Source: Tidjanibacter sp. (GTDB lineage: Bacteria > Bacteroidota > Bacteroidia > Bacteroidales > Rikenellaceae). From it: 64,000 nucleotides of DNA. Position 1 is the first letter of the stretch; each line of letters opens with the position of its first letter. This document shows, in pieces, positions 5,372 through 60,735 of the stretch. The notes under the pieces are model-generated. The model was not told where the DNA came from. It did not search any database and saw only the letters and a list, made by a program, of their open reading frames with translations. The position numbers were made by a program, and so were the translations under genes. The stretch covers positions 1 through 64,000 of the forward strand of contig JAGBFH010000015.1 in assembly GCA_017936605.1 (NCBI GenBank). Reading direction: 5' to 3'.

Positions 5372-5495
5372 AGGGAGTTGAGAGTTGAGAATGGGACTTA
5401 TGGGACTTATGGGGCTTATGGGGAATTAAGGTCCTTAAAGTCCTTAAACTCCCTAAACTCCCTAAACTCCCTAAACCCCCTAAACCCCCTATATA
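5372..5495. repeat. Heptamer then nonamer array after the DUF4834-like gene
   Basis: Right after the stop codon, GAGTTGA is repeated with a 7-bp period. From about 5391 a strict 9-bp period follows: ATGGGACTT, ATGGGACTT, ATGGGGCTT, then TAAACTCCC three times and TAAACCCCC twice. It occupies much of the spacer before the gapA promoter. No gene is seen in it. Confidence 0.8.
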
Positions 5496-5563
5496 GTTTT
5501 CCATTCTCAAAGTTAAGCCAATGTTACTTTTTGGCGGAGTTACTAAAAAAATTTAAAAATAGT

Positions 5564-6808: not shown

Positions 6809-6968
6809 AGGCAAAAAGGACAAAAAAGGCCGAAAGGGCCGAAAGGATTGCAGGATAAATGGGGCCTATAAGACCTATAAGACTTATAAGACCCATAGGC
6901 CCCATAGGCCCCATAAGCCCTTAAGGACTTTAACGACCTTAACGACATTAACGACATTAACGACATTC
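6809..6968. repeat. Nonamer array downstream of gapA
   Basis: The array keeps a 9-bp period throughout. It starts with GGCAAAAAG and GGCCGAAAG units, changes to GACCTATAA and GCCCCATAG units, and ends with GACATTAAC three times. Units differ from each other but the period is kept. From here to the gene at 7135 I see only a weak promoter. Confidence 0.8.
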
Positions 6969-7101
6969 TCTTTCAACTTTCAATCCCCAACATCCTATCC
7001 TCCAGCCCATTACCGCGTACCATGTAAAAAAGTTGAAAAAAAGTTACTTTGCCGTGCAACAAAACACCCTCCTTGTGCATCTATATATACAAAGGAATTA
7101 G

Positions 7102-11705: not shown

Positions 11706-12020
11706 ATGGCACTTGTAATCAATGACGCCAACTATGCAGAGTTGGCAGCCGATGGCAAACTTTTGGTAATCGATTTCTGGGCAGAGTGGTGCGGTCCTTG
11801 CCGTATGATCGGTCCTATCGTAGAGAAACTCGCAGAGGAGTTCGAGGGCAAAGCAAACATTGGCAAATGCAATGTAGACGAGTCGAATGATATTACCGGA
11901 AAATTCTCGGTACGCAACATCCCCACCATCGTCTTCGTTAAGAATGGCGAGCTCGTGGACAAACAGGTAGGCGCTTGCTCGGAGGGTGACCTTCGCAAGA
12001 AAATCGAGGCTAACCTATAA
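11706..12020 (+). CDS. trxA: Thioredoxin
   Basis: Small cytoplasmic disulfide reductase of 104 residues. The active site WAEWCGPCRM (CGPC) and the cis-proline loop RNIPTIV are intact. It is reduced by thioredoxin reductase and serves reductases such as ribonucleotide reductase. It begins 50 bp after dnaE and may be read from the same transcript. It ends in a perfect hairpin terminator. Confidence 0.96.
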   Translation: MALVINDANYAELAADGKLLVIDFWAEWCGPCRMIGPIVEKLAEEFEGKANIGKCNVDESNDITGKFSVRNIPTIVFVKNGELVDKQVGACSEGDLRKKIEANL

Positions 12021-12123: not shown

Positions 12124-12360
12124 AAGGTGAGAGGTGAAAAGTGGAAGGTGAAAGATAAGGTCATTAAGGTCCCTAAGGTCTTTAAGGTCCTTAATTTTTA
12201 TAAATTCCCTAATAAATAATTTTGAATTTCGAATTTTGAATTTTGCATTCCTTTTGGCCCTTTCGGCCCTTTCGGCCCTTACCCTCCCCTAAGTTAGGGG
12301 AGGGAATTAGATGGGGCCTATGAGACCTATGGGACTTATAAGCCACATAAGCCCTATCAA
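12124..12360. repeat. Heptamer and nonamer arrays with CCCTCCCCTAA palindrome
   Basis: 12124-12150 has a 7-bp period (AGGTGAG, AGGTGAA). 12160-12200 has 9-bp GGTCCTTAA-like units. 12219-12250 is 7-bp again (TTGAATT, TCGAATT). 12252-12281 is 9-bp GGCCCTTTC. A perfect palindrome at 12282-12304 (half CCCTCCCCTAA) comes next, followed by GGGCCTATG-like nonamers. I see no coding sequence here. Confidence 0.75.
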
Positions 12361-12603
12361 GACTTAGGTCGGGCGTAGGGCGTCGGACGACCACCATAAT
12401 TAGCCAGCACCGTTGCACAAGGTTATTATCAAGGGCTTAGCCCTTGACCAAGCCTCCCTTTTCAAAGGGAGGTTTGGAGGGATTGTCTATACTCATTCCG
12501 CGAATGCGGATTTTTTTGCCAAACAAAGGAGCGGACTCCGCAGGGCACAACGGTGCCAGCGGGTAATGGGAACACAACCCACCGCTTTCCTTTGAAAGTA
12601 AAA
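12331..12603. repeat. Composite direct repeat, copy 1
   Basis: 12331-12508 matches 33993-34161 at most positions, including the hairpin CCTCCCTTTTCAAAGGGAGG. The match continues through a GGCACAACGGTGCC hairpin and CCCACCGCTTT into the nested element that starts at 12604. Both copies end in a nested element in the same order, which makes a composite of about 380 bp. No open frame here looks like a real gene. Confidence 0.8.
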
Positions 12604-12719
12604 ACGCATAGAGCGAGGGGAATTTTTTGCCAACAAGATGGGCGAGGCCCGCAGCTTACTCGAGGTAAGTGAGGGTCTCGCCCGTTGCAGTTTGGTGAAA
12701 AATCCACCCGCTATATACA
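12604..12719 (-). repeat. Nested 3'-end hairpin element, copy 2
   Basis: Read on the minus strand, stem 2 is GGGCGAGACCC / GGGCCTCGCCC. It encloses TCA-CTTAC-loop-GTAAG-CTGC. The inner helix is CTTAC/GTAAG instead of TTTGC/GCAAA, a paired change. This copy lies downstream of copy 3 with no gene between them, and its outer arm is followed by TTTTT on the minus strand. Confidence 0.8.
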
Positions 12720-12741
12720 GTTTTCAATTTTCGAAAGAAAT

Positions 12742-12857
12742 GCGCAGATTATTCAGGGATTTTTGTGCCAAACAAAAAGGCGAGTCCGCAGTTTGCTAAT
12801 TGCAAATGAGGAACTCGCCTATTGAAGTTTGGTGCGAAAAGCACCAATAATCTGTGC
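12742..12857 (-). repeat. Nested 3'-end hairpin element, copy 3 (after aroE)
   Basis: On the minus strand the element begins 15 nt after the aroE stop. The outer arms are GCACAGATTATT / AATAATCTGCGC, and the middle arms are GCACCAAAC / GTTTGGCAC. Stem 2 is GGCGAGTTCC / GGACTCGCC, and the core is TCA-TTTGC-AATTA-GCAAA-CTGC. Confidence 0.8.
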
Positions 12858-12872
12858 TTTTACTCGACAATT

Positions 12873-14345: not shown

Positions 14346-14445
14346 CAATTCAAAATAGAAAATTGAAAATGGACACTTGAAAATATAATCCTTAGGGTCC
14401 TTAATGTCCTTAAAGTCCTTAAAGTCCCTAAACTCCTTATATAAT
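14346..14445. repeat. Short heptamer and nonamer arrays
   Basis: ATTGAAA-like 7-bp units are followed by CCTTAAAGT-like 9-bp units (14395-14440). The array lies between the membrane protein gene and the tRNA-Leu gene. A second 7-bp array (ATTCAAA, ATGCAAA) sits at 14651-14680. Confidence 0.65.
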
Positions 14446-21593: not shown

Positions 21594-21880
21594 GCGGTCA
21601 GCAGTCAGCAGTCGACTCAGTACTCAGCCATAAACAAACTCACGGGTATTAAAATTAATACCCGTGAGTTTGTTTGTCGAAATTCAAAATGCAAAATTCA
21701 AAATGCAAAATTGGTTAAGAGATAGGACCCATAAGACCCATAGGACTTATAAGACTTATAGGCCCCATTAGTCGCGCTTGTTTATGCCACTTTTGGTGGC
21801 AAAAGTGGCGCAAAAGCCACCGCAAGGCATCTATGGCGGGAGCGCAGGACTTATTGCTTTTGGTCTTCCACAAAGCCCCA
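21594..21880. repeat. Heptamer and nonamer arrays after the lipoprotein operon
   Basis: AGCGGTC/AGCAGTC units with a 7-bp period run from about 21594 to 21628. ATTCAAA/ATGCAAA heptamers fill 21680-21712. 9-bp units like GACCCATAA and GACTTATAA fill 21722-21768. An imperfect hairpin GCCACTTTT / AAAAGTGGC lies near 21787. I see no gene here. Confidence 0.7.
21632..21675 (+). terminator. Terminator of the lipoprotein operon
   Basis: AAACAAACTCACGGGTATTA pairs with TAATACCCGTGAGTTTGTTT around a short A/T loop. It is a nearly perfect 20-bp stem and could work in both directions. Confidence 0.85.
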
Positions 21881-29345: not shown

Positions 29346-29514
29346 TTGGGGGCATTAAGGTCCTTAAGGTCTTTAAGGTCCTTAGGGTCCTTAAGGTCTT
29401 TAATGCCCTTTGGGCCCTTTTCGCCCTTTCGGCCCTTTTGGCCCTTTCCCTCCCCTAAGTTAGGGGAGGGTCGCGAAGCGGGGAGAGGTCTGTTATCTGT
29501 TATCGTCGGCCGAC
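29346..29514. repeat. Nonamer array, CCCTCCCCTAA palindrome and shared tail
   Basis: GGTCCTTAA units with a 9-bp period change into GGCCCTTTT units up to 29447. The palindrome 29448-29470 follows (half CCCTCCCCTAA). Then comes a block GCGAAGCGGGGAGAGGTCTG with TTATCTG heptamers, which is also found at about 35585-35615 and inverted at about 60510-60540. Confidence 0.75.
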
Positions 29515-33849: not shown

Positions 33850-33992
33850 AAAAAAGTTGAAAGTTGAGAATAATTAGGGAAGATTGAGGAAATTGGGCAT
33901 TGAGAGTTGAAAGGGCCAAAAGGGCTAAAAGGATTTATAGGACCTTAAAGTCCTTAAGGTCCTTAAAGACCTATAGGGCCTATGGGGCCTAT
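33850..33992. repeat. Heptamer and nonamer arrays upstream of murI
   Basis: GTTGAAA/GTTGAGA heptamers are followed by 9-bp units: GGGCCAAAA, GGGCTAAAA, GACCTTAAA, GTCCTTAAG, GACCTATAG, GGCCTATGG. The array leads straight into the second composite direct repeat. Confidence 0.75.
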
Positions 33993-34246
33993 GGGACATA
34001 TAAGCCACATAAGCCCTATCAAGACTTAGGTCGGGCGTCGGGCGACCACCATAATTAGCCAGCACCGTTGAACAATGTGCCTATCAAGGGCTTGTCCTTG
34101 ACCAAGCCTCCCTTTTCAAAGGGAGGTTTGGAGGGATTGTCTATACTCATTCCGCGAATGCAGAATTTTGCGGCAGCGGCCGCAGCGAGGCACAACGGTG
34201 CCAGCGAGTTAGGGTGGCACTCCCCACCGCTTCCCCTTGAAAGAAA
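33993..34246. repeat. Composite direct repeat, copy 2
   Basis: 33993-34161 matches 12331-12508 closely; TAAGCCACATAAGCCCTATC and GGAGGGATTGTCTATACTCA are identical in both. After it come the GGCACAACGGTGCC hairpin (from 34187) and CCCACCGCTT, as in copy 1, and then a nested hairpin element. No gene is seen. Confidence 0.8.
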
Positions 34247-34366
34247 AACCGCATATCGCGGAGGGAATTTTTTAACAACAAGATGGGCGAGGCCCGCAGC
34301 TTACTTTCGTAAGTGAGGGTCTCGCCCGTTGCAGTTGGTGAAAAATTCACCCGCGAGATGCGGTTT
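34247..34366 (-). repeat. Nested 3'-end hairpin element, copy 6 (at a stop codon)
   Basis: On the minus strand the stem AACCGCATCTCGCGGG begins at the second A of the gene's TAA stop and pairs with CCCTCCGCGATATGCGGTT. Stem 2 is GGGCGAGACCC / GGGCCTCGCCC, and the core is TCA-CTTAC-GAAA-GTAAG-CTGC. Five T follow the outer arm. Confidence 0.8.
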
Positions 34367-35372: not shown

Positions 35373-35620
35373 GGAGAATTGAGAGCGGAGAGATAAGGTC
35401 CCTAGGGTCGTTAAGGTCTTTAAGGTCTTTAAGGTCCTTAAAGTCCCCTCAAACAATTATGAATATTAAATTCCCTTTTGGCCCTTTCTGCCCTTTTAGC
35501 CCCTTTGGGACTCCTCCCCTACGAAAGGGGAGGTTGGGAGGGGTGCTCGAAAATTGCGTGCGCGTCCTCGCGCACAGGGAGGGTCCGCGTAGCGGGGGAG
35601 AGGTCTGTTATCTGTAGTCT
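35373..35620. repeat. Heptamer and nonamer arrays with hairpin module
   Basis: GAGAATT/GAGAGCG heptamers are followed by GGTCTTTAA/GGTCCTTAA nonamers (35398-35445) and GGCCCTTTC-like nonamers (35478-35508). A CTCCCCTACGAAAGGGGAG hairpin comes next, then a GTGCGCG/CGCGCAC hairpin, then the GGGGAGAGGTCTG block with TTATCTG. No gene is seen. Confidence 0.7.
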
Positions 35621-35625
35621 TTCGA

Positions 35626-35740
35626 CGCATATCGCGGAGGGAGTTTTGTGCCAAATAAGAAAGCGGCACCGGAGTTTGCTTGGCGCAAATGAGGATGCCG
35701 CTTTGAGATTTGGTGCAAAATTCACCCGCGAGATGTGCTC
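35626..35740 (-). repeat. Nested 3'-end hairpin element, copy 7 (after prfC)
   Basis: On the minus strand the element starts with the prfC stop itself: TAGCGAGCACATCTCGCGGG. The middle arms are TTTTGCACCAAAT / ATTTGGCACAAAA, and stem 2 is AAGCGGCATCC / GGTGCCGCTT. The core is TCA-TTTGC-GCCAA-GCAAA-CTCC. There is no T-run after it. Confidence 0.8.
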
Positions 35741-35741
35741 G

Positions 35742-37319
35742 CTAAAATTCGGAGGTGAACTTGAATCGAATATCAGGAAACTTCTCGATGGCGAGTTGGA
35801 GGGCGTAGGAGGTGTCGGCAAGGAAGACATCGCGGCCGTGCTTGTCCACCGCCATATTGGTGAACTTGCGCTTCTTGAAGTCGGCCAGCTGCTCGGCGTT
35901 GTCGGACTCTATCCAGCAGGCCTTGTGGATGGCTATGGGCTCCCAACGACACTTGGCGCTATACTCGTGCTCGAGGCGGTACTGGATGACCTCAAACTGG
36001 AGGGCACCCACCGTGCCGATAATCTTGCGGCCGTTGAGCGACGAGGTGAAGAGCTGTGCCACACCTTCATCCATAAGCTGGTCGATACCCTTGGCGAGCT
36101 GTTTGAACTTCTGGGGGTCGGCATTCTCTATGTAGCGGAACATCTCGGGTGCGAAGGAGGGGATGCCCGTAAACTTGAGTTTCTCACCCTCGGTGAAGGT
36201 GTCGCCAATCTTGAAGTTGCCCGTATCGTGAAGTCCCACAATATCACCCGCATAGGCGGTATCGACAACAGATTTTTTCTCGGCCAGGAAGACGCTGGGC
36301 GAGGAGAACTTCATCTGCTTGCCACTACGCACATGGAGGTAGTTTTTACCTCGCTCAAAGGTGCCGCTACAAATCTTCAGGAAGGCGAGGCGGTCACGGT
36401 GGTTGGGGTCCATATTGGCGTGAATCTTGAAGACAAAGCCCGTCATCTTCTCCTCGGTGGCCTCCACGATGCGTGTTTCGGTGGGAGCGGCGTGGGGCGA
36501 GGGTGCAATGCGGATGAAGGTCTCCAGAAGCTCCCTTACACCAAAGTTATTCACAGCCGAGCCGAAGAATACGGGGGCCAGCAGACCCTGAAGGTAGAGG
36601 TCCCTATCGAAGGGCTCGAAGAGTTCGGCAACCATCTCGAGGTTTTCGTGCAGTTCGTCGGCCGACTTTGCGCCTATATGGGTAGCCAGGGCGGGGTCAT
36701 CGAGTGTGAGGTGGATACTCTCGGCAATATACTGATGGTCCACCTCTTTGAAGAGTGCAAGGCTCTCGTCGAAGATGTTGTAGACACCCTGGAAAGAGTT
36801 ACCACTGCCGATGGGGAACGAGAGGGGCCTGACGGCAATCTGCAACTCCTGCTCAATCTCCTCCAGAAGCTCAAAGGGCTCCTTGCAGGGGCGGTCGAGT
36901 TTGTTCACAAAGACCATCACAGGCGTAGAGCGCATACGGCACACATTCATAAGTTTACGGGTCTGGCTCTCAACACCTTTCGCACCGTCGATAACGATAA
37001 TTACAGCATCTACGGCCGTAAGGGTGCGGTAGGTATCCTCGGCGAAGTCTTCGTGACCTGGGGTGTCGAGGATGTTGATCTTCGTGCCCTGGTACTCAAA
37101 CTCCATAACGGAGGTGGCCACCGAGATACCCCTCTGGCGCTCAATCTCCATAAAGTCGGAGGTTGCGGTCTTCTTGATTTTGTTGCTCTTGACGGCACCT
37201 GCCACGTGGATAGCGCCACCGAAGAGGAGGAGTTTTTCGGTGAGAGTGGTCTTACCCGCATCGGGGTGTGCGATGACGGCGAATGTTCGCCTGCGTTTGA
37301 TTTCGTCCTGTAATGCCAT
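35742..37319 (-). CDS. prfC: Peptide chain release factor 3
   Basis: Translational GTPase of 525 residues that removes RF1/RF2 from the ribosome after peptide release. The G-domain motifs are VIAHPDAGKTTLTE, RGISVATSV (switch), LDTPGHEDFAEDT and VNKLDRPCKEP. Domain II and the RF3-type C-terminal domain follow (LQFEVIQYRLEHEY). Length matches the family. The gene is divergent from xerD, and the stop codon is the first base triplet of a nested hairpin element. Confidence 0.97.
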   Translation of the reverse strand: MALQDEIKRRRTFAVIAHPDAGKTTLTEKLLLFGGAIHVAGAVKSNKIKKTATSDFMEIERQRGISVATSVMEFEYQGTKINILDTPGHEDFAEDTYRTLTAVDAVIIVIDGAKGVESQTRKLMNVCRMRSTPVMVFVNKLDRPCKEPFELLEEIEQELQIAVRPLSFPIGSGNSFQGVYNIFDESLALFKEVDHQYIAESIHLTLDDPALATHIGAKSADELHENLEMVAELFEPFDRDLYLQGLLAPVFFGSAVNNFGVRELLETFIRIAPSPHAAPTETRIVEATEEKMTGFVFKIHANMDPNHRDRLAFLKICSGTFERGKNYLHVRSGKQMKFSSPSVFLAEKKSVVDTAYAGDIVGLHDTGNFKIGDTFTEGEKLKFTGIPSFAPEMFRYIENADPQKFKQLAKGIDQLMDEGVAQLFTSSLNGRKIIGTVGALQFEVIQYRLEHEYSAKCRWEPIAIHKACWIESDNAEQLADFKKRKFTNMAVDKHGRDVFLADTSYALQLAIEKFPDIRFKFTSEF

Positions 37320-42442: not shown

Positions 42443-42600
42443 TTGAAAATGGAAAATTGACAATTGAAAAATATATGAGTGAAAGGTCGGGAAATTAGCG
42501 ACCTTAGGGAAAGCCCCCAAAAAACCCCTTAAGGACCTTAAAGACATTAAAGCCCTTAAAATCCCACTTCTCCCCTCTCTCATCTCTCCCCTCTACAACC
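42443..42600. repeat. Heptamer and nonamer arrays
   Basis: TTGAAAA, TGGAAAA, TTGACAA, TTGAAAA have a 7-bp period (42444-42472). CCTTAAGGA, CCTTAAAGA, CATTAAAGC nonamers lie at 42527-42562, followed by a TCTCCCC/TCTCATC stretch. The spacer to the U32 gene at 42651 holds no gene that I can see. Confidence 0.7.
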
Positions 42601-46145: not shown

Positions 46146-46266
46146 TGGCAACGGCCACAGCGGGCACAACGGTGCCAGCGAAATTAGGGATTCCGAAGCA
46201 AAGCCGTGGGTAGAACTACGACATACGGTTACACTAAAAGTTTTTGGTGCAGCTTTTTACAAAAAG
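46145..46266 (+). repeat. Leader repeat unit 1
   Basis: It starts with GTGGCAACGGCCAC, followed by the GGCACAACGGTGCC hairpin, AGCGAAATTAGGGATTCC, AAGCAAAGCCGTGGGTAG, and CTAAAAGTTTTTGGTGCAGC with the AGCTTTTTACAAAAAG end. It is a more diverged copy of the two units that follow. Confidence 0.75.
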
Positions 46267-46415
46267 GTGGCAACGGCCACAACGAGTGCTGGGATTCCTA
46301 AGCAAGGCGGTGGGTAGTGGCACAACATATGGTATAACGATACGAAGTATCGTCTAAAAATTTTTGGGGCGCCTTTTTATAAAAAGGCGCGAAAGGTGCA
46401 GCTTTTTACAAAAAG
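46267..46415 (+). repeat. Leader repeat unit 2
   Basis: Blocks: GTGGCAACGGCCAC, GAGTGCTGGGATTCCTAAGC, AAGGCGGTGGGTAGTGGCAC, ACGATACGAAGTATCGT, TAAAAATTTTTGGGGCGCC and the 22-bp palindrome (46369-46390, half GCGCCTTTTTA). These are the same blocks as before mnmA. Confidence 0.8.
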
Positions 46416-46545
46416 GTGGCAACGGCCACAGCGAGTGCTGGGATTCCTAAGCAAAGCGGTGGGTAGTGGCACAACCTTTGATATAACGATACGAAGTATC
46501 GTCTAAAAGTTTTTGGTGCAGCTTTTTACAAAAAGCTGCGAAAAG
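46416..46545 (+). repeat. Leader repeat unit 3, next to the aldehyde dehydrogenase start
   Basis: Nearly identical to unit 2 up to CGATACGAAGTATCGTC, then TAAAAGTTTTTGGTGCAGC and an AGCTTTTTACAAAAAGCT hairpin. GCGAAAAGGC units lead to the purine-rich ribosome-binding region AAAGGAAAG of the gene at 46579. Confidence 0.8.
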
Positions 46546-50830: not shown

Positions 50831-50900
50831 ACGCTTCTCTTAAGTAGTTTTGTGTTAGAAATATTTTTTAGTTATCAGTTTTCAGTTTGCGGGGGCGAGA

Positions 50901-51012
50901 GGGTGGTTAGGGAATTTAGGAAATTTAGGGAGAAGCCTTTTGGCCCTTTTTGCCCTTTTTGCCCTTTTTGCCGTTCTGGCCCTTTGGCCCCCTTTGGCCA
51001 CTTTGGCCCTCT
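50901..51012. repeat. Nonamer array up to the DUF1573 stop
   Basis: 9-bp units ATTTAGGGA, TGGCCCTTT, TTGCCCTTT (three times), CTTTGGCCA, CTTTGGCCC run until 2 bp before the stop codon of the DUF1573 gene. Confidence 0.75.
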
Positions 51013-52371: not shown

Positions 52372-52387
52372 TTTCTATACCTCCAGG

Positions 52388-52556
52388 AGAATTGACAATT
52401 GACAATTGACAATGGACAATGTTAGGGAGCCTTCGTTAAGGACCTTAAAGACCTTAAAGACCTTAAAGACCTATAGGGCTTATAGGGCTTATAAGTCTTA
52501 TAGGTCCCATTGTCGGCAGACGGCATACGGCAGACGGCAGACGGCAGACGGTAGTT
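52388..52556. repeat. Two heptamer arrays flanking a nonamer array
   Basis: TTGACAA has a 7-bp period (52391-52420). GACCTTAAA three times, GACCTATAG, GGCTTATAG, GGCTTATAA and GTCTTATAG have a 9-bp period (52438-52510). CGGCAGA and CGGCATA have a 7-bp period (52513-52552). This is the clearest example in the window of both periods side by side. No gene is seen. Confidence 0.85.
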
Positions 52557-52560
52557 GCGA

Positions 52561-52678
52561 GTGCATATCGCGAGGGGAATTTTGTGCGAAATAAGAAGGT
52601 GGCTCCGCAGTTTGCTTGACGCAAATGAGGAAGCCACCTTTGAAATTTGGTGCAAAATTCACCCGCGAGATGTGCTCG
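52561..52678 (-). repeat. Nested 3'-end hairpin element, copy 8 (at the 5'-nucleotidase stop)
   Basis: On the minus strand the gene's TAG stop is followed by CGAGCACATCTCGCGGG, identical to copy 7. The middle arms are TTTTGCACCAAAT / ATTTCGCACAAAA, and stem 2 is AGGTGGCTTCC / GGAGCCACCT. The core is TCA-TTTGC-GTCAA-GCAAA-CTGC. There is no T-run after it. Confidence 0.8.
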
Positions 52679-54106
52679 CTACTTAATCAAAACGCGGGAA
52701 TTATTGTCTGGAGTGACAGGACCGCGGGAGAATAGGTCGATGAGGTAGTCGGTCACAAGGGGCGAACGGCTGCTCTCGGGACGGCGGGGATAGGCATAGA
52801 CTTTGTTGCCGTAGACATAGTCCGAGATGGCCACCGTGTAGAGCTCCTTCTCGACCTCGGGGCGGAAGATGACACCCGTAGCGTCGCCCTTGGAGTCGGT
52901 CAGGATGGTGTACTCGAGGCCCGAGGGGATGAGGTCCTCGCGGTGGGACTCCTTATAGTTGGTTGTGTCGTTGAACTTATTGACAATCATCTGCTCAATC
53001 TCCTCGAGGGTCATAGTGGTCACAGAGAGGTAGCTCTTGAAAGGCTCGAGCTCATAGATATCGGCGCGGGTAACATCGCCCTCAGCGAGCGAGTGGAGGC
53101 GCGTGCCGCCAATGTGGTAGAAGCCCAGGTCGGTGCCTGCCACTCTACGCCCCTCATCGGCCATCAGTTGTGCCAGAGCGGTCTTCGAGGCGGTGGCCGT
53201 AAGGGTGCCTATGGGCTCGGTGAGGAAAGGGTTGTTGTAGTAATCGGCAAGACCCTCTTTCATCTTGAGGTCCTCATCCTCGGGAAGGCTCATATACTTG
53301 GTTTCCAGAGCGGTAACCTTGCCATCCTCAACGGTCAGGGTGGTTACGCCCACAGCCTTGAGTTTATTGCTGCCCTGCACCACAGCCACATCGCCCACCT
53401 TGCCCGAGTAGGTCTCGTGGGTGTGACCACTCACGATAAGGTCGGCATAGGGGAATGCCGAGGCCACATTTGTGGTGTCGCGGTCGAGGCCGCAGTGGGA
53501 GATGACAACCATCACATCGCACTTATCTCGGAGCTTTTTGCCATACTTCTCGGCGGTCCATTCGGGCGAGAAGAACTCGGTACCCACATATACGGGGTCG
53601 TCACCGTCGGGGTGGCCGTTGGCGTAGTTGGTCACAAGCCCCAGGAAGCCCACCTTCACGCCCCCTGCCCTCTTAATCACATAGGGTTTGGGTTGCTGAA
53701 GAGGGGTCTTGCCCGTATTGACATTGGCCAGAATGAGGTCGAACTCGGCATCCTCTACCCTCTTCTGGAGAGTGTCGAGGCCCATATCGAACTCGTGGTT
53801 GCCGAAGGTGGCCACATCGTAGCCCACCTCGTTCATAAGTTCAATTATGGGCAGACCCGCATTGGGAGCCATATCGACATAGGCGTTACCTGTCCACCTG
53901 TCGCCCGCATCCACAAGGAACACTCGGGCCGTATCTTGTGCGCGCGCCTCGGCTACGAAGGCCGCCAGACGGGGCATCATATCAATTTTGGCGTGGATAT
54001 CGCTGGTGGAGATGATGATAAGTTTCTCCTGTGTGGGCGAAGGGGTGCAACCCACGCCAAGGAGCGCGGCCAGCAGTACCACAATGCTAAAATAGGCTTT
54101 TTTCAT
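52679..54106 (-). CDS. UshA-type 5'-nucleotidase / metallophosphatase lipoprotein
   Basis: Exported two-metal phosphatase of 475 residues that removes phosphate from nucleotides or sugar nucleotides. The start at 54106 gives a lipoprotein signal ending LLGVGC. Metal motifs are IISTSDIHAKID, VDAGDRWTG, ATFGNHEFDMG, VVISHCGLDRD and IVSGHTHETYSG. The C-terminal nucleotidase domain (about 290-470) has the substrate cleft segment DLGFYHIGGTRL. It is divergent from a nucleoside kinase gene, so breakdown and salvage of nucleotides lie side by side. Confidence 0.92.
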   Translation of the reverse strand: MKKAYFSIVVLLAALLGVGCTPSPTQEKLIIISTSDIHAKIDMMPRLAAFVAEARAQDTARVFLVDAGDRWTGNAYVDMAPNAGLPIIELMNEVGYDVATFGNHEFDMGLDTLQKRVEDAEFDLILANVNTGKTPLQQPKPYVIKRAGGVKVGFLGLVTNYANGHPDGDDPVYVGTEFFSPEWTAEKYGKKLRDKCDVMVVISHCGLDRDTTNVASAFPYADLIVSGHTHETYSGKVGDVAVVQGSNKLKAVGVTTLTVEDGKVTALETKYMSLPEDEDLKMKEGLADYYNNPFLTEPIGTLTATASKTALAQLMADEGRRVAGTDLGFYHIGGTRLHSLAEGDVTRADIYELEPFKSYLSVTTMTLEEIEQMIVNKFNDTTNYKESHREDLIPSGLEYTILTDSKGDATGVIFRPEVEKELYTVAISDYVYGNKVYAYPRRPESSRSPLVTDYLIDLFSRGPVTPDNNSRVLIK

Positions 54107-55939: not shown

Positions 55940-56045
55940 AGAGGAGAGAGGAGGTCCTTAAGGGTTTATGGGGCTTATGGGGCCTATGGGGCTTATAGGT
56001 ATTATAAGTCTTATAGGCCCTATATGTCGGCAGGTCGGTCGTCGG
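55940..56045. repeat. Nonamer array between kinase and ffh genes
   Basis: GGTCCTTAA, GGGTTTATG, GGGCTTATG, GGGCCTATG, GGGCTTATA, GGTATTATA, AGTCTTATA have a 9-bp period. CGGTCGT/CGGTAGA heptamers follow. Confidence 0.75.
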
Positions 56046-60255: not shown

Positions 60256-60452
60256 TGGCCAGCCGACAACAGCAGTCAGCGGTCAGCGGTCAGCAGTCAG
60301 CGGTCAGCCTTGTTCGTGGGTTACATTTTTGTTACCCGCGAACTATTTAGAAGGGCAGAAAGGGCCGAAAGGGCTAAAAGGGCAAAAAGGCATTAAGGAC
60401 CTTAATGACCTCAAGGACTTTAATGACCTTAGGGACCTTAAGGAAATTAGGG
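60256..60452. repeat. Heptamer array, hairpin and nonamer array
   Basis: CAGCAGT/CAGCGGT heptamers lie at 60268-60308. A nonamer array at 60353-60452 runs GGGCAGAAA, GGGCCGAAA, GGGCTAAAA, GGGCAAAAA, GACCTTAAT, GACCTCAAG, GACCTTAGG. It shows GGCCGAAAG-type and GACCTTAAG-type units merging in one register. Confidence 0.82.
60312..60343. terminator. GGGTTACA-class hairpin, copy 4
   Basis: GTTCGTGGGTTAC pairs with GTTACCCGCGAAC with one mismatch and one G-T pair around TTTTT. The core is the same as in copies 1-3. Confidence 0.65.
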
Positions 60453-60467
60453 AGAGGCCAAGTTTTC

Positions 60468-60735
60468 CCATCTCTCCCATCTCTCCCATCTCTCTCATCT
60501 CACTACCGAAGCACAACAGACCTCTCCCGGGCTTCGCCCACCCTCCCCTAACTTAGGGGAGGGGAAGGGCCGAAAGGCATTAAGGACCTTAAGGACTTTA
60601 AGGACCTTAGGGACCTTAAGGACCCTAATTTTCAATTTTCAATTGTCAATTGTCAATTTTCGCAAATGCGAGTAAGCGAGAGCAGAGGGCACATCTGCCC
60701 TCTGCCGAGCGGGAGCATTTTAGACAAAACTTCAG
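60468..60735. repeat. Further arrays and hairpins before rluD
   Basis: TCTCCCATC nonamers lie at 60470-60500. An inverted AGACCTCTCCC block follows, then the palindrome 60541-60563 (half CCCTCCCCTAA). GACCTTAAG nonamers lie at 60583-60628, and TTTTCAA/TTGTCAA heptamers at 60627-60662. Hairpins GCAGAGGGCA / TGCCCTCTGC and GACAAAACT / AGTTTTGTC lie near 60690 and 60722. No gene is seen. Confidence 0.75.

What the first reader, a model, noticed from the sequence alone, without database searches (positions are those of the whole stretch)
52430..52515. Strict 9-bp period arrays in most spacers
Nonamer arrays occur at about 5391, 6809, 12160, 14395, 21722, 29346, 33910, 35398, 42527, 50901, 52438, 55940, 60353 and 60583. 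Units differ widely (GACCTTAAA, GGCCGAAAG, GGCTTATAG, TAAACTCCC, GGCCCTTTT), yet the 9-bp step is kept for up to 150 bp, and unit types merge in one register at 60353-60452. Sequence drift with a locked period points to continuous turnover by slippage or to a constraint on spacing. They sit at the ends of transcription units.
Basis: seen in the sequence. Interest (0 to 1): 0.65.

Follow-up and report, generated by a model that had tools for sequence, protein, structure and literature searches.

The report
Nine-base repeat arrays filling gene gaps
The gaps between genes in this gut bacterium (family Rikenellaceae) are littered with short repeats whose step is always nine or seven bases; they look like restless "junk" repeats that gain and lose whole units and travel with small dispersed hairpin elements, rather than a spacing code with a function.

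Summary
In 1.33 of the genome's 1.88 Mb, my spacer set (659 gaps) holds 212 period-9 arrays and also 126 period-7 arrays. Neighbouring periods (4-6, 8, 10-13) are nearly empty, dinucleotide shuffles give none, and coding sequence has only a few. All 14 listed window sites are confirmed. "Most spacers" is too strong: 22% of gaps of at least 40 bp, 43% of those of at least 200 bp.

The diverse nonamers are one family. All 255 arrays fit one nine-column pattern (WRGYCCTTW, 6.1 bits against 2.6 when columns are permuted). Adjacent units are most alike. An array aligned to its sister-species ortholog differs by two indels, each exactly 9 bp. Many arrays are anchored in register to a dispersed double hairpin (73 copies found), and 13 of 16 paralogs with both anchors span exact multiples of nine (2-7 units).

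Best reading: clade-specific minisatellites that turn over by 9-bp (or 7-bp) steps and spread as parts of composite intergenic repeats, tolerated at gene 3' ends. Spacing constraint, paired hairpin arms and telomerase-like synthesis found no support. Why only 7 and 9 stays unexplained. New variant of a known kind.

The parts
52432..52507 (+). The cited period-9 array: TTAAAGACC units running into TATAGGGCT / TATAAGTCT units
52386..52422 (+). Period-7 array (AATTGAC) directly before the cited array
52512..52555 (+). Period-7 array (CGGCAGA) directly after the cited array
52557..52679 (+). F3 hairpin element, about 120 bp, dispersed; another copy at 35627-35744
5387..5496 (.). Period-9 array (ATGGGACTT, TTAAAGTCC, TCCCTAAAC units)
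6819..6972 (.). Period-9 arrays (AAAGGGCCG at 6819-6850; CCTATAAGA, CCCATAGGC, TTAACGACA at 6859-6972)
12154..12339 (.). Period-9 arrays at 12154-12195, 12247-12287 and 12311-12339 with a period-7 array at 12218-12249 and the F1 palindrome core at 12284-12302
14387..14441 (.). Period-9 array (TCCTTAAAG)
21720..21762 (.). Period-9 array (ATAAGACCC), preceded by a period-7 array at 21677-21712
29349..29450 (.). Period-9 array (TTAAGGTCC running into GCCCTTTTG), joined to F1
29449..29500 (+). F1 double-hairpin element (CCTCCCCTAAGTTAGGGGAGGG-TCGCGAAGCGG-GGAGAGGTCTGT)
33906..34004 (.). Period-9 array (AAAGGGCCA, CCTTAAAGT, CCTATGGGG)
35397..35508 (.). Period-9 arrays at 35397-35448 (TAAGGTCCT) and 35473-35508 (CCCTTTTGG)
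42525..42564 (.). Period-9 array (CCTTAAAGA), with a period-7 array at 42445-42467
50900..51008 (.). Period-9 arrays (TTAGGGAAT then CCTTTTGGC); no such array in the orthologous gap of G032
55960..56019 (.). Period-9 array (GGGCTTATG, TTATAGGTA)
60348..60453 (+). Period-9 run in which AAGGGCNAA, TTAAGGACC and TTAGGGAGA units follow in one register
60458..60563 (-). F1 double hairpin (about 60516-60563), linker (60503-60515) and its array (60458-60506) read on the minus strand
60573..60630 (.). Period-9 array (TTAAGGACC) followed by a period-7 array at 60626-60662

Best explanation
These are minisatellites specific to a clade of Rikenellaceae. Shown: they lie almost only between genes, with a step of nine (a second set: seven) bases; all nine-base units fit one sequence pattern; neighbouring units are most alike; related copies inside the genome, and one aligned pair between sister species, differ mostly by whole nine-base units; many arrays are joined in fixed register to a dispersed double-hairpin element found round the genome; whole arrays come and go between species about 90% identical in their genes. 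Inferred: unit number changes by replication slippage or unequal exchange inside the array; composites of hairpins plus arrays spread by transposition-like or gene-conversion-like copying with unknown enzymes; arrays pile up at gene 3' ends because insertions near promoters and in genes are removed by selection. No function is needed. The period stays locked because a tandem copy inherits it and because arrays share ancestry. Why the founding periods were 9 and 7 is not explained.
For: Lag-9 and lag-7 peaks and near-absence of other periods. One 9-column profile for 255 arrays, 6.1 bits against 2.6 permuted, and decay of unit identity with distance. Ortholog C4:61165 against G032 with two indels of exactly 9 bp and a shared change in consecutive units. 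Paralogs anchored on both sides spanning 18 to 63 bp, 13 of 16 exact multiples of nine. Fixed-register joining to F1. Repeat families cover 21.5% of array-bearing gaps against 4.9% of others. Arrays missing or replaced in orthologous gaps. Strong excess in convergent gaps, none in short divergent ones.
Against: No strain-level or time-series data, so slippage itself was not seen. No enzyme for dispersal was found; RAYT is absent. The limitation to 7 and 9 is not predicted by plain slippage. The purine-left polarity of paired arrays (50 against 18) is only loosely explained. Part of the identity decay follows from how arrays were detected. Only one orthologous array was aligned in detail, from a fragmented sister assembly.
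Confidence: 0.7

Rival explanations
1. Each array was born independently by slippage from local sequence; a property of this lineage's polymerase or repair favours loops of exactly seven or nine bases. Dispersal plays no part.
For: Only two periods stand out; heptamer excess in other bacteria has been ascribed to polymerase contact length (cited in PMC4679880).
Against: Independent births would not give one shared 9-column grammar or arrays in fixed register beside the same element and linker at many places.
Confidence: 0.15
2. The 9-bp spacing is under selection: a protein, or transcription termination, reads a site every nine bases at gene ends.
For: Location at 3' ends, shared grammar with an RGG/YCC core, arrays with A-rich left and T-rich right ends that resemble bidirectional terminators in outline.
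Against: Arrays are absent from several orthologous gaps that keep a normal terminator; most gaps lack them; arms in one gap are less, not more, complementary than arms of different gaps (-0.65 against -0.76 kcal/mol per nt); units copy their neighbours, which spacing alone does not need.
Confidence: 0.08
3. A telomerase-like reverse transcriptase writes tandem repeats of fixed step from an RNA template into the chromosome.
For: The DRT10 system Eco3 makes 9-nt tandem repeats, and motif sequence and length vary between systems (PMC12632851); this would explain fixed steps with differing sequences.
Against: The only RVT_1 protein found in the genome (G000:C10) sits beside an Avd-like protein and a repeated C-terminal stretch, the layout of a diversity-generating retroelement. 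Gradual unit drift along arrays is not expected from one template.
Confidence: 0.03

Closest known systems
Long simple sequence repeats of bacteria, mainly heptamers (cyanobacteria, Xanthomonas GGGAATC, Beggiatoaceae TAACTGA)
   Same: Intergenic, many arrays, few units each, sporadic across lineages; unit length 5-11; the heptamers here are of the same kind.
   Different: Here a second, equally strong step of nine exists; units form one degenerate family and lie in composites with hairpin elements. Published cases centre on one heptamer per genome or group.
BrickBuilt MITE of Porphyromonas gingivalis
   Same: Bacteroidales; intergenic, dispersed element with an internal tandem array of variable unit number and conserved flanks.
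   Different: Step 23 bp, 19 copies, defined leader and tail with terminal inverted repeats; here steps 9 and 7, hundreds of arrays, several hairpin partners, no defined element ends shown.
REP/RAYT and other dispersed palindromic repeats
   Same: Hairpin elements in 3' intergenic positions.
   Different: No Y1 transposase in the genome; REP elements are not tandem short-step arrays.
DRT10 tandem-repeat cDNA synthesis
   Same: Tandem repeats with a 9-nt step in the Eco3 system.
   Different: DRT10 products are reported as cDNA, not chromosomal arrays; no such enzyme was found here.

Membership tests
Bacterial intergenic long simple sequence repeats / minisatellites | Tandem head-to-tail units more frequent than chance, mainly between genes | tested here: met
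   212 and 126 arrays in spacers against 0 in shuffles; 4 and 2 in coding sequence
Bacterial intergenic long simple sequence repeats / minisatellites | Unit-number variation in whole steps | tested here: met
   Two 9-bp indels in an orthologous array; 13 of 16 anchored paralogs exact multiples of nine; strain level not tested
MITE carrying a minisatellite (BrickBuilt-like) | Conserved flanks on both sides of the array in dispersed copies | tested here: met
   F1 plus linker on one side and a TTCC anchor on the other in 16 copies; holds for a subset of arrays only
MITE carrying a minisatellite (BrickBuilt-like) | Terminal inverted repeats and target-site duplication | not tested
   Ends of the composites were not defined; fragmented relatives and the letter limit prevented empty-site analysis
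REP/RAYT | Y1 transposase of the RAYT type in the genome | tested here: not met
   PF01797 absent from the genome
DRT10 / telomerase-like repeat synthesis | Dedicated reverse transcriptase with a template RNA matching the unit | tested here: not met
   Single RVT_1 protein, beside Avd, so a DGR; draft genome, so a missing gene is not strictly excluded

The most novel reading that the evidence does not exclude
A dedicated but unknown machinery copies composite intergenic elements (double hairpin plus arrays) and extends their arrays in fixed steps of nine and seven bases, so that the two step sizes reflect an enzyme rather than an accident of ancestry.
Probability: 0.12. Interest if true: 0.8.

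Novelty: new variant of a known kind. Interest (0 to 1): 0.45.

Why it matters
The heptamer excess among bacterial long repeats was reported in 2007 and, in the papers I could read, has no settled cause. A genome with exactly two locked steps, one of them nine, with hundreds of arrays, close relatives that lack them, and paralogs anchored on both sides gives a natural experiment on how unit length is set and how intergenic minisatellites are born, spread and lost. It also warns that metagenome assemblies of this clade may break at such gaps.

Tried and rejected
(1) Hairpin pairing between left and right arms, prompted by the purine-left/pyrimidine-right polarity and by mirrored unit order in one gap: same-gap arms are not more complementary than arms of different gaps. 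(2) Self-complementary units driving slippage, as in CNG repeats: small excess for nonamers, none for heptamers. (3) Telomerase/DRT10-like synthesis: the genome's only RVT_1 protein is a DGR. (4) REP/RAYT: no Y1 transposase. (5) Known RNA families: Rfam finds only two tRNAs in the window. (6) The F3 hairpin has no match among plasmid records. (7) Register conservation between separately detected neighbouring arrays: too few pairs and no clear phase.

Full report
What is there. The window is contig C3 of a 1.88-Mb genome in 25 contigs. Release factor 3 from the window is 94% identical to that of Tidjanibacter sp. metagenome assemblies from ruminants and about 74-83% identical to Alistipes and other Rikenellaceae, so the organism is a Rikenellaceae close to Tidjanibacter. 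I read 1.33 Mb of the genome, called genes with a hexamer model trained on long ORFs and studied the 659 gaps of 40 bp or more.

The period. Autocorrelation in gaps peaks at lag 9 (0.314 against 0.261 +/- 0.001 in dinucleotide shuffles, z 74) and at lag 7 (z 62), with echoes at multiples; coding sequence shows the codon period. With a fixed threshold, gaps hold 212 arrays at period 9 and 126 at period 7, against 0-6 at 4-6, 8 and 10-13, and none in shuffled gaps. All 14 listed places are real. Genome-wide, 22% of gaps >=40 bp and 43% of gaps >=200 bp hold a period-9 array, so 'most spacers' holds only for the long gaps of this window.

The units. Hundreds of 9-mers occur, but a few dominate (AAGGACCTT, AAAAGGGCC, AAAGTCCTT, AAGACCTAT, AAAGACCTT). 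When each array may choose strand and phase freely, all 255 arrays settle into one nine-column profile, roughly W R G Y C C T T W, with 6.1 bits against 2.6 bits when the columns of each array are permuted. Within arrays, identity falls from 0.78 for neighbours to 0.39 eight units away, the mark of local duplication followed by drift; part of this fall is built into the way arrays were detected. Arrays sampled from most relatives that carry period 9 fit the same profile better than permuted versions do (small numbers, G033 being an exception).

Turnover by nine. Two comparisons show the step directly. In the gap C4:61165 the array aligns to its ortholog in the sister genome G032 (flanks about 92% identical) with two indels, each exactly nine bases, and consecutive TTTAGGGAG units share a T-to-A change, a sign of homogenisation. 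Inside the genome, 25 copies of the linker GTGCTTCGG(T/C)AG are each followed by an array of ARAATGGGA-type units; in 16 of them a right-hand anchor is found, at distances of 18, 18, 27, 36, 36, 36, 45, 45, 45, 54, 54, 63 and 63, all multiples of nine, and 19, 38 and 89 in the other three.

Dispersal. Many arrays are parts of composites. A double hairpin, F1 (CCCTCCCCTAAGTTAGGGGAGGG, then a second hairpin of changing but complementary sequence such as CCGCGAAGCGG, GCCCGTAGGGC, GGGCGAAGCCC or GCCGAAGGC, then GGGAGAGGTCTGT), was found 73 times, often with an array in fixed register on its left (GGCCCTT) or right (linker plus array). Its core occurs 108 times in the genome and in none of 295 other Bacteroidota genomes sampled. 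Gaps with arrays carry other repeat families over 21.5% of their length, gaps without over 4.9%. Orthologous gaps in G032 can keep an ordinary terminator yet lack the whole array (for example C5:8018 and C22:139810), lack it otherwise (window 50900-51008), or hold an array of other units. At the locus of the finding, G032 keeps tRNA-Asn, its terminator and the F3 hairpin, but has TATAAGACT-type units, a different heptamer array and an F1-like hairpin.

Distribution. (AAGGACCTT)2 with up to two mismatches is found 442 times in this genome, 132 in G012, 57 in G016, 16 in G017, 12 in G034 and 2-6 in G013, G032 and G033. In the other genomes of a 120-genome Rikenellaceae sample it occurs at most once, about as often as its reversed control. 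Samples of about 20 kb show both periods in G012, G017, G016, G013 and G011 and neither in G003, G014, G010, G001 or G004 of the same genus. Among 80 named Bacteroidales loci, period 7 is scattered, while period 9 of this kind is clear only in Tidjanibacter sp. RGIG5366; whether the few other period-9 stretches there are coding was not checked. The pattern search is unit-specific and the relatives are fragmented, so these densities are lower bounds.

Position. Period-9 arrays lie in 46% of convergent, 18% of tandem and 12% of divergent gaps, in none of 80 divergent gaps shorter than 300 bp, and hardly ever in genes. Removal of insertions near promoters explains this without a function. One polarity I cannot fully explain: where two arrays adjoin, the G-rich strand tends to come first whatever the gene direction (50 against 18). 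Paired hairpin arms would predict better pairing within a gap than between gaps; the opposite was seen. Shared composites, which often run from G-rich into C-rich units, are the likelier cause (inference).

Verdict. Clade-specific minisatellites of step nine and seven that turn over by whole units and spread with intergenic hairpin elements; a new variant of known bacterial long repeats (heptamer SSRs) and of the MITE-with-minisatellite design (BrickBuilt). Not explained: why 7 and 9 and almost nothing between, and what moves the composites.

Noticed in passing
window 52557-52679, 35627-35744, about 34245-34365, 12600-12720, 12737-12860; 40 cores in 1.33 Mb of G000: F3, a palindromic element of about 120 bp with an invariant core (CCGCAGYTTRC ... 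GYAARTGAGG) and outer stems that change on both sides while staying paired; it keeps its place but swaps its stem in the sister G032 at the cited locus. No Y1 transposase in the genome.
   Followed up: partly
window 29449-29500, about 60516-60563, core also at 12284-12302; 108 cores in G000: F1, a double hairpin whose second stem varies with compensating changes (24 stem variants counted), found in none of 295 other Bacteroidota genomes sampled by exact core.
   Followed up: partly
G000:C10 (locus L299, 1153-3133): A reverse transcriptase beside an Avd-like protein, with the C-terminal stretch SNRTRAVA repeated upstream: apparently a diversity-generating retroelement.
   Followed up: partly
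window 46246-46543: A 149-bp tandem duplication (91% identical) containing the GATACGAAGTATC palindrome that recurs in other gaps.
   Followed up: no
G032 contigs C113:13308, C137:3457, C260:5539: The sister genome has period-9 arrays of a class not seen among the common units here (TTCCAGGGG); not checked for coding.
   Followed up: no
window 21640-21680 and C9:2168; about 39 copies: A near-identical terminator-like hairpin (CACGGGTATTAAAATTAATACCCGTG and CACGGGTTAC...GTAACCCGTG versions) recurs in many gaps and is kept in sister species.
   Followed up: no
G032 contigs facing window gaps near 12020, 21592, 35262 and 52384: Flanks of several repeat-rich gaps fall on different contigs of the fragmented sister assembly, so arrays are probably undercounted in draft genomes.
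   Followed up: no
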